Shown here one piece after another: positions 22,060 to 23,699 of a DNA stretch of 64,000 nt. The stretch is taken from positions 1 to 64,000 of the forward strand of contig JAHCIH010000004.1 in assembly GCA_026129335.1 (NCBI GenBank), given 5' to 3'. This DNA comes from Anaerolineales bacterium (GTDB lineage: Bacteria; Chloroflexota; Anaerolineae; Anaerolineales; UBA11579). Numbering within the stretch: position 1 is the stretch's first letter; every line of letters starts with the position of its first letter. A program made the translations under genes and the position numbers. The notes under the pieces were generated by a model. It searched no databases and had not been told where the DNA came from. It worked only from the letters and a program-made list of their open reading frames with translations.

Positions 22060-23001
22060 TTGTCGTTTCTGGAGCGCTTCTTCGCAGACGAACACCAGGT
22101 GCTGGACGCGCGGGTGCGCGAAACCCTGCCGGGCGAAACGGCCCGGCTGAGCGACGGCGTGACCTATTATCAGCAGGCCGGGCCGCGCAACGGCCGCCCG
22201 GTCATCCTCATTCACGGTTTTTCGGTGCCGCAGTTCATCTGGGACGCCAACTTCGAAGCCCTGGCGGCGGCCGGCCTGCGCGTGGTGCGTTATGACCTCT
22301 TCGGGCGCGGCTACTCCGACCGCCCGGGGCTGCCCTACGACAAAGCGCTTTTCGTGCGCCAACTGGCCGAACTGATGGACGTACTCAAGCTGCCCCAGGC
22401 CGACCTGGTGGCGCTCTCGATGGGTGGCCCGGTCGCCGCCGAATTCGCCTTTCGCTTTCCGAAGCGGGTGCGCAGGCTGGCGTTCATTGCCCCAGCCGGC
22501 TTCGACCTGAGGCTGCCCGCCGCAGTGCGCTGGCTGCGCCTGCCGCTGCTGGGCGAGCTGGCCCTGGGGATGCTGGGCCGCTTCGGCCAGCGCAGCCTGC
22601 TCGAAGGCATGCTGGCCGACTTCTATCAGCCCAGCCAGGAGGCGTTGGACTATTTCGTGCCGCGCTATCAGGAACAGATGAAGTACCACGGCTTCAAACG
22701 CGCCCTGCTCTCCAGCCTGCGCCGCGGCATGCTCGACGAAGACCTGGAGCTCTACCGCAGGCTGGGGGAGGCTGAGGCGCCGGTGTTGCTCCTCTGGGGC
22801 GAGCACGACCAGACGGTGCCCTTTAGCCATCACGGCACGTTCCAGCAATTGGTGCCGCGGGCCGAATTCCACGCCATCTCCGAGGCGGGGCACCTGCCGC
22901 ATTTCGAGCGCCCCGACCTGGTCAACCCGCTGCTCATCGAGTTTCTCACTAGACCCCCAGCTCCACCCGTTATTGCGAGGAGCACGCGCGGTGATGCATG
23001 A
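22060..23001 (+). CDS. Alpha/beta-hydrolase fold protein with repeat-derived C-terminus
   Basis: About 313 residues. The fold is shown by ILIHGFSVPQFIWDANFEAL, RVVRYDLFGRGYSDRPG, the nucleophile elbow LVALSMGGPVAAEFA and the C-terminal GEHDQTVPF and SEAGHLPHFERP. The substrate is unknown. The start is probably the TTG two bases after the upstream stop. The last ten residues, VIARSTRGDA, and the stop codon are encoded by the family A repeat, so the original C-terminus was probably different. Confidence 0.85.
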   Translation: MSFLERFFADEHQVLDARVRETLPGETARLSDGVTYYQQAGPRNGRPVILIHGFSVPQFIWDANFEALAAAGLRVVRYDLFGRGYSDRPGLPYDKALFVRQLAELMDVLKLPQADLVALSMGGPVAAEFAFRFPKRVRRLAFIAPAGFDLRLPAAVRWLRLPLLGELALGMLGRFGQRSLLEGMLADFYQPSQEALDYFVPRYQEQMKYHGFKRALLSSLRRGMLDEDLELYRRLGEAEAPVLLLWGEHDQTVPFSHHGTFQQLVPRAEFHAISEAGHLPHFERPDLVNPLLIEFLTRPPAPPVIARSTRGDA

Positions 23002-23116
23002 ATATGCATCACCGCGCAGCGGACGAAGCAATCTCGGATGCAGGCTATGCAGACATGAAAACCGAGATTGCTTCGTCGTTGCCAGCGCTTCGCGCTGGTA
23101 CACTCCTCGCAATGAC
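22969..23116. repeat. Interspersed inverted-repeat element, family A, copy 2
   Basis: About 148 bp with ends GTTATTGCGAGGAG (22969-22982; one mismatch to copy 1) and its partner CTCCTCGCAATGAC (23103-23116). Inside are a hairpin around ATGCAT (22990-23013) and the CGAAGCAATCTC / GAGATTGCTTCG arms. It fills the whole gap between the hydrolase and the cytidylyltransferase and overlaps both coding ends: it provides the hydrolase stop, and its terminal ATGAC holds the next start codon. Confidence 0.88.
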
Positions 23117-23699
23117 AAACATCGCCGGCATCCTGCTGGCCGCCGGAGAGTCCAAGCGGTTGGGGCAGCCCAAGCAGCTGCTTGACTGGAAGGGCAGGCC
23201 CTTCGTGCGCCAGGTGGCCGAGACGGCGCTGGCCTCCAAACTTGGCTCGTTGACTGTGGTCACCGGCGCAATGGCCGCTGAGGTCGCCGCCGCCCTGGAT
23301 GGCTTGCCGCTGAACATCGTCCACAACCCCGACTGGGCCGCGGGGCAGAGCACCTCTGTGCGTGCCGGGCTGGCCGCCGTCCCCCCGGAGGCGACCGCGG
23401 CGCTGTTCATGGTCACCGACCAGCCGCAGCTCTCCGTGGCGCTCATCGACACCCTGTGCGCCGAGCACGCCGCCAGCGGGGCGCCCATCGTCGCCCCGCT
23501 GGTGGACGGCCAGCGCAGCAACCCGGTGCTCTTCGACCGCAGCACCTTCGCCCACTTTGCCGAACTGCAGGGCGATGTGGGCGGCCGGGCGCTGTTCTCC
23601 CGCTTTCCGGTGACCTGGATACCCTGGCTGGATAACTCACTGGCCATCGATGTGGATACGCCCGAAGACTACGAGAGGCTCAAGCGCCTGGCGGGCTAG
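23112..23699 (+). CDS. mocA: Molybdenum cofactor cytidylyltransferase-like nucleotidyltransferase
   Basis: A 195-residue MobA-like nucleotidyltransferase: GILLAAGESKRLGQPKQLL is the GTP/CTP-binding motif and MVTDQPQLS the metal-binding one; SNPVLFDRSTF follows. MocA makes molybdopterin cytosine dinucleotide for xanthine-dehydrogenase-type enzymes, which fits the operon upstream. CTP versus GTP use is inferred from context. Its ATG lies in the terminal repeat of the family A element, and a TACACT box inside the element ends 7 nt before it. Confidence 0.84.
   Translation: MTNIAGILLAAGESKRLGQPKQLLDWKGRPFVRQVAETALASKLGSLTVVTGAMAAEVAAALDGLPLNIVHNPDWAAGQSTSVRAGLAAVPPEATAALFMVTDQPQLSVALIDTLCAEHAASGAPIVAPLVDGQRSNPVLFDRSTFAHFAELQGDVGGRALFSRFPVTWIPWLDNSLAIDVDTPEDYERLKRLAG

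What the first reader, a model, noticed from the sequence alone, without database searches (positions are those of the whole stretch)
22969..23116. Repeat element supplies the end of one gene and the promoter and start codon of the next
The family A repeat fills the gap between an alpha/beta hydrolase and mocA. Its left end encodes the hydrolase's last ten residues (VIARSTRGDA) and the stop codon. Its right end contains TACACT seven bases before an ATG that lies in the terminal sequence CGCAATGAC. An inserted element therefore seems to have rewritten a C-terminus and provided a new leaderless promoter and start for a molybdenum-cofactor gene.
Basis: partly seen in the sequence, partly recalled or inferred. 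Interest (0 to 1): 0.6.

Follow-up and report, generated by a model that had tools for sequence, protein, structure and literature searches.

The report
Repeat captures two neighbouring gene ends
In an uncultured Anaerolineales bacterium a short palindromic repeat sitting between two genes now holds the last ten codons of one and the start codon (and probably the promoter) of the next; relatives show that only part of this came from the insertion itself, the rest from later changes.

Summary
The 148-bp element (22969-23116) is an inverted pair of interspersed palindromic units. It encodes VIARSTRGDA plus the stop of an alpha/beta hydrolase, and carries TACACT-N7-ATG at the start of a MocA-like gene. 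Eight same-genus genomes keep the gene pair. Three have no repeat there: the genes overlap as ATGA, the hydrolase ends about 12 residues earlier, and mocA starts at nearly the same codon. In close relative G010 the same kind of repeat begins at the same point, but after an intact stop (TGACC|TGTCATTGCG); the window reads CCA there. So the C-terminal extension came from stop loss after insertion, not from insertion itself. The start half holds better: the element's terminal ATG is the only start giving a normal MocA N-terminus, no Shine-Dalgarno precedes it, and this genome widely uses leaderless promoters (TANNNT 6-7 nt before 16 of 94 called starts versus 4 of 460 internal ATGs). The ATG would be fully paired in read-through RNA and mostly free in a leaderless one. 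No transcript was seen. Among 36 repeat ends examined here this is the only clear such case. Precedents exist (MITEAba12, BOX, Correia), so interest is moderate.

The parts
22060..23001 (+). alpha/beta hydrolase gene (ORF opens at GTG 21997; start of the protein not settled); last ten codons and stop lie in the repeat
   Evidence: Pfam Abhydrolase_1 at residues 47-285 of 313, so the extension is outside the domain; dN/dS 0.15-0.19 against G009/G010
22963..22965 (+). CCA codon in place of the TGA stop that G009 and G010 have at this position
   Evidence: CCAGCTCCACCCGTTATTGCG in the window against CCAGCCTGACCTGTCATTGCG in G010
22969..23116 (.). two-unit inverted palindromic element
22969..23037 (+). 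left unit: outer end GTTATTGCGAGGAG, 14-bp hairpin, inner end GACGAAGCAATCTCGG
   Evidence: genome matches cover positions 1-66 as one unit
22969..23001 (+). repeat-encoded hydrolase tail VIARSTRGDA and TGA stop
   Evidence: codon score -0.47 per codon against 0.36 for the rest of the gene
23062..23116 (-). right unit, read on the + strand as CCGAGATTGCTTCGTC...CTCCTCGCAATGAC
   Evidence: matches cover positions 91-148 as one unit
23096..23104 (+). extended -10-like TGGTACACT
   Evidence: same geometry as leaderless starts in this genome; GCNGGTACACTCCTC occurs only upstream of mocA in G000, G009 and G010
23112..23114 (+). mocA ATG inside the terminal CGCAATGAC of the element
   Evidence: gives MTN-IAGILLAAG, matching the N-terminus of the eight syntenic relatives minus one residue
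23112..23699 (+). MocA-like nucleotidyltransferase gene
   Evidence: Pfam NTP_transf_3 E 1.5e-36; TIGR03310 MocA E 9e-43 but below its cut-off; dN/dS 0.14-0.17
22998..23111 (+). rival start: ATG overlapping the hydrolase stop as ATGA, in frame with mocA, 38-codon extension
   Evidence: coding score -0.07 per codon, below any 38-codon stretch of the two genes

Best explanation
A pair of inverted palindromic repeat units landed just behind the hydrolase stop codon, as this family often does, in an ancestor shared with G010, and split a gene pair that in repeat-free relatives is joined by an ATGA stop/start overlap. Afterwards the window's lineage lost the hydrolase stop (TGA to CCA), so translation now runs 12 codons on (2 old flank, 10 repeat) to a chance stop in the repeat. 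On the other side a deletion, or the insertion itself, brought the element's terminal CGCAATGAC against mocA codon 3 (AAC), so the element's ATG replaced the native start. MocA is most likely made from a leaderless mRNA that starts at or next to this ATG from the extended -10 TGGTACACT. Shown: anatomy, empty sites, stop loss relative to G009/G010, altered start context, genome-wide leaderless signal. Inferred: the transcript, the order of events on the mocA side, and any benefit.
For: Empty sites in G004, G006, G007 with a -4 gap (ATGA overlap) and hydrolase tails ending FLARGAQ, FLSKI, FLGRPA. G010 has the repeat left end at the same point behind an intact TGA, and a right unit 92% alike. GCNGGTACACTCCTC is found three times in 11 genomes, each time upstream of mocA, in G000, G009 and G010. 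MocA in the window has one residue fewer before (I/V)AG than all eight relatives and shares codon 3 (Asn) with G009/G010. TANNNT 6-7 nt before the start in 16 of 94 called genes against 4 of 460 internal ATGs, including a non-repeat gene with GGTACACT-N7-ATG. Only anti-SD-like CTCCTC precedes the ATG, so an SD-led start there is very unlikely. ATG unpaired probability 0.0 in read-through RNA and about 0.8 in a leaderless RNA. Both genes are under purifying selection. Repeat ends face gene stops in 26 of 36 cases, 10 of them 1-15 nt behind the stop.
Against: No RNA or protein data. TACACT departs from the local consensus TAnaAT at position 5 and no -35 at good spacing was found. About one in five ends of this repeat family carries TANNNT-N7-ATG by family sequence alone. 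G009, sister of G010, lacks the element at the first position and has a TACACT unit elsewhere in the same gap, so the shared-insertion history is not simple. Unit copies are 96-98% alike across species even at unrelated sites, so similarity of the right units does not prove selection on the promoter.
Confidence: 0.55

Rival explanations
1. Coupled translation. The stop inside the repeat overlaps an ATG (ATGA, 22998-23001) that is in frame with mocA, so ribosomes finishing the hydrolase restart there and make MocA with a 38-residue repeat-encoded extension. Stop loss restored the ancestral coupling.
For: The frame is open from 22998 to 23699. The arrangement in repeat-free G004, G006 and G007 is an ATGA overlap.
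Against: The same overlap and open frame arise in 7% of shuffles. The extension scores -0.07 per codon, below any stretch of the two genes (minimum 0.08), and the MocA start chosen in the eight relatives has no such extension.
Confidence: 0.15
2. MocA is expressed by read-through from the hydrolase/xanthine dehydrogenase-like gene row and starts at ATG 23112 on that long mRNA. Ribosomes running into the repeat keep its left arm open and free the start.
For: Same strand and conserved gene order. Masking 22957-23014 raises ATG accessibility to about 0.8.
Against: Without that masking the ATG is fully paired; masking only the terminating ribosome's footprint (22987-23014) does not free it. No SD, and CTCCTC before the ATG is anti-SD-like.
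Confidence: 0.2
3. One reading: a single insertion event itself rewrote the C-terminus and created promoter and start.
For: Both gene ends do lie in the element, and three relatives lack it.
Against: G010 has the repeat and keeps the stop; the window differs from it by TGA to CCA upstream of the element.
Confidence: 0.05

Closest known systems
MITEAba12 of Acinetobacter (PMC6382973)
   Same: Short inverted-repeat element with outward promoters. In some copies its end supplies the first four codons (MQQS) of the next gene near the promoter; in another it supplies the stop of the gene before.
   Different: Different sequence, IS-derived with target duplications, sigma-70 two-box promoters; in the passages read, no copy is said to do both at once. 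Its stop case truncates a gene by 398 residues; here the gene is extended by 12.
BOX elements of Streptococcus pneumoniae (PMC3049150)
   Same: Repeats overlap coding ends: in 36 genes BOX encodes the stop codon; boxC can provide start codons of expressed ORFs.
   Different: Those start-codon ORFs match only hypothetical proteins; here the next gene is a conserved enzyme gene.
Correia elements of Neisseria (reviewed in PMC10969869)
   Same: Mobile repeats upstream of genes carrying working promoters.
   Different: Sigma-70-like promoters, other termini (from own knowledge, not leaderless).
REP/REPIN palindromic repeats with RAYT transposases
   Same: Single palindromic units and inverted doublets, mostly just behind genes.
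   Different: No RAYT-like gene was found beside the repeats; the best Y1_Tnp matches in relatives are one receiver-fused conserved protein.
Leaderless TANNNT genes (PMC3160421, PMC12340547)
   Same: -10 motif a few nt before the start codon; reported for some Chloroflexi at 4-6% of genes.
   Different: Here the motif and the ATG lie in a repeat end; the signal in this genome is seen at about 17% of called starts in the sampled regions.

Membership tests
MITE-like interspersed element | Short, non-coding, with terminal inverted repeats | tested here: met
   148 bp, 14-bp ends 93% complementary
MITE-like interspersed element | Many dispersed copies | tested here: met
   36-37 matches in own assembly
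MITE-like interspersed element | Target-site duplication and a parent transposase with the same ends | tested here: inconclusive
   No clear duplication seen at this site; no parent transposase found, but only Y1_Tnp was searched
REPIN/RAYT system | Inverted doublet of short palindromic units | tested here: met
   Matches split into 1-66 and 91-148; doublets also elsewhere, e.g. L020, L030
REPIN/RAYT system | RAYT gene in the genome flanked by the repeats | tested here: not met
   None in the own assembly (72% complete); Y1_Tnp proteins retrieved from 10 relatives are about 450-aa proteins without family-typical repeats beside them; the extra copies in G003 were not examined
Leaderless promoter | -10-like TANNNT at 6-7 nt before the start codon, no SD | tested here: met
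   TACACT, 7 nt, ATG; CTCCTC instead of SD
Leaderless promoter | Transcript 5' end at the start codon | not testable with these tools
   No RNA data
Rfam families | Match above gathering score | tested here: not met
   Only a tRNA and a glycine riboswitch in the window

The most novel reading that the evidence does not exclude
The outer end of this repeat family (TANNNT-CCTCGCA-ATGAC) is a ready-made leaderless start module. In genomes that use leaderless promoters, any insertion or deletion that puts it in frame against a coding sequence gives promoter and start codon at once, and mocA is a working example.
Probability: 0.3. Interest if true: 0.55.

Novelty: new member of a known kind. Interest (0 to 1): 0.36.

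Why it matters
It gives a stepwise natural example, with empty sites and an intermediate, of how a palindromic repeat becomes part of two genes: insertion behind a stop codon, later stop loss, and start capture. It also suggests that leaderless expression makes start capture easy, because promoter and start codon need only about 16 bp. And it warns that a gene end inside a repeat need not have been made by the insertion.

Tried and rejected
Literature search for the repeat letters (cattgcgagg, gaagcaatct) found no relevant paper (23 hits, and the 20 listed of 52 hits, all unrelated). Rfam gave no match. Sigma-70 two-box and terminator scans of 22800-23250 found nothing. One pattern (GCNNGGTACACTCCTC) was mistyped and gave no hits; the corrected one is. 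A second apparent start capture (etfB, C16:16205) was rejected: the repeat ATG is in frame, but AAGGAGG followed by TTG-AAA-ATC is the likelier start. Other long ORFs from repeat ATGs (e.g. L164, L180, L181) were set aside as likely antisense readings; for L181 a higher-scoring gene lies on the other strand. An argument that the right unit is conserved by selection was dropped because units at unrelated sites are equally alike across species. Misassembly is unlikely as the cause: gene order on both sides of the repeat is conserved in relatives.

Full report
What is there. The element 22969-23116 begins on a codon boundary of the hydrolase, encodes VIARSTRGDA and TGA, and ends with CGCAATGAC, whose ATG opens the MocA-like gene; TACACT lies 7 nt before it. 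It folds into a closed three-armed structure at -97 kcal/mol, z -12, from 14-bp outer ends, a 14-bp hairpin and a 16-bp inner inverted repeat, plus a small hairpin just before TACACT. Matches elsewhere in the genome cover either the left 66 or the right 58 positions, so it is an inverted doublet of a smaller palindromic unit. Strong matches are concentrated in this genus, with weak ones in three other genera of a 121-genome sample of the order. Nearest named relatives of the mocA locus are Anaerolineales metagenome-assembled genomes such as TGS_CHL2, DTUCFX4, ACE_CHL7 and ACE_CHL1.

Comparison with relatives. The hydrolase-mocA order is kept in eight other genomes of the genus. In G004, G006 and G007 nothing lies between the genes: the stop and start overlap as ATGA, the hydrolase ends FLARGAQ, FLSKI or FLGRPA, and mocA starts MSEQ or MSQR. 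G001, G002 and G008 carry other repeat copies at the junction and their own stops and starts; in G008 the repeat end is followed by AAAGGAAGCTG-ATG, an SD-like start. G009 and G010 are nearest to the window (82% protein identity; dS 0.67-0.87 for mocA).

The C-terminus. In G010 the hydrolase ends ACG CCA GCC TGA and the repeat follows at once as CC TGTCATTGCG. The window reads CCC CCA GCT CCA CC CGTTATTGCG. The left end of the repeat sits at the same place, but TGA has become CCA. The extra 12 residues (PP plus ten from the repeat) therefore come from stop loss after insertion. The tail has a codon score unlike coding sequence (-0.47 per codon against 0.36) and lies outside the Pfam domain, as expected of a recent extension without much function. 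Both genes evolve under purifying selection.

Generality. Of 36 outer repeat ends with a neighbouring gene in this genome, 26 face a gene's stop and 10 of those lie 1-15 nt behind it. The family thus tends to sit just behind stop codons. Only the window's copy contains a gene's stop, and only it has a clear gene start at its terminal ATG; the etfB copy has a better SD-led start downstream.

The start. mocA in the window has one residue fewer before the conserved (I/V)AGILLAAG than any of the eight relatives, and its third codon (AAC, Asn) matches codon 3 of G009/G010. In those two, 30-odd nt of other sequence and another repeat family lie between the unit and mocA. Joining the repeat's ATGACA to AAC CAT GTA GCC would give MTNHVAG, close to the window's MTNIAG, so a deletion in the window's lineage is the simplest route; this step is inferred. 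The fifteen letters GCNGGTACACTCCTC occur just three times in the 11 genomes, each upstream of mocA in G000, G010 and G009, so these units probably share an origin. Unit copies stay alike across species anyway, so this does not show selection on the hexamer.

Leaderless expression. With starts chosen by codon score alone, TANNNT sits 6 or 7 nt before the start in 16 of 94 genes and before 4 of 460 internal ATGs (window alone). Two of the 16 are repeat ends (mocA and etfB), leaving 14 of 92. One ordinary gene has GGTACACT-N7-ATG. TACACT is preceded by TGG, an extended -10. The sequence before the ATG, CTCCTC, resembles anti-SD, so an SD-led start is very unlikely. In a read-through RNA the ATG is completely paired; in an RNA beginning at it, it is about 80% free. 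A published survey reports leaderless genes in Chloroflexi at 4.0-5.7% (PMC3160421), and work in Deinococcus shows experimentally that such a motif acts as promoter (PMC12340547). The caution is that about a fifth of this family's ends have TANNNT-N7-ATG anyway.

The new hydrolase stop overlaps an ATG (ATGA at 22998) in frame with mocA, recreating the overlap seen in repeat-free relatives and allowing a 38-residue extended MocA. Shuffles give this in 7% of cases, and the extension does not look like coding sequence. It remains possible at lower odds.

Known ground. Repeats that provide promoters, start codons or stop codons are known: MITEAba12, BOX, Correia and Rickettsia palindromic elements, enterobacterial repeat units (PMC2759123). 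What is added here is one copy touching both genes, a leaderless arrangement, and relatives that show the steps.

Limits. The assembly is 72% complete, gene starts were called by a simple codon score, taxon naming rests on loci of other genomes, and no expression data were available.

Noticed in passing
22969-23116 and loci L032-L039: The hydrolase-mocA junction carries repeats in six of nine genomes of the genus, with different copies in G001, G002, G008 and the G000/G009/G010 group, so it looks like a repeated insertion site.
   Followed up: partly
window, e.g. starts at 1185, 6147, 8747, 12200, 32262, 45638: Strong leaderless signal (TANNNT 6-7 nt before the start) at many ordinary genes, higher than the 4-6% reported for Chloroflexi.
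   Followed up: yes
L190-L199: A conserved protein of about 450 aa, usually single copy in the genus, with a response-receiver-like N-terminus (judged by eye) and a Y1_Tnp-like C-terminal part, apparently a domesticated transposase domain.
   Followed up: partly
L183 around 1504 (G000:C16:16205): Repeat end TATACT-N7-ATG in frame upstream of an electron-transfer flavoprotein beta gene that has its own SD and TTG start.
   Followed up: partly
L034 (G001), about 1323-1490: TATGACT on both sides of the repeat cluster at the hydrolase-mocA junction, a possible 7-bp target duplication; one copy alone would leave an open frame into mocA.
   Followed up: no
L032 and L033 between hydrolase and mocA: A second repeat family (TGTCATCCTGA...TCAGGATGACA) is nested with the first.
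   Followed up: no
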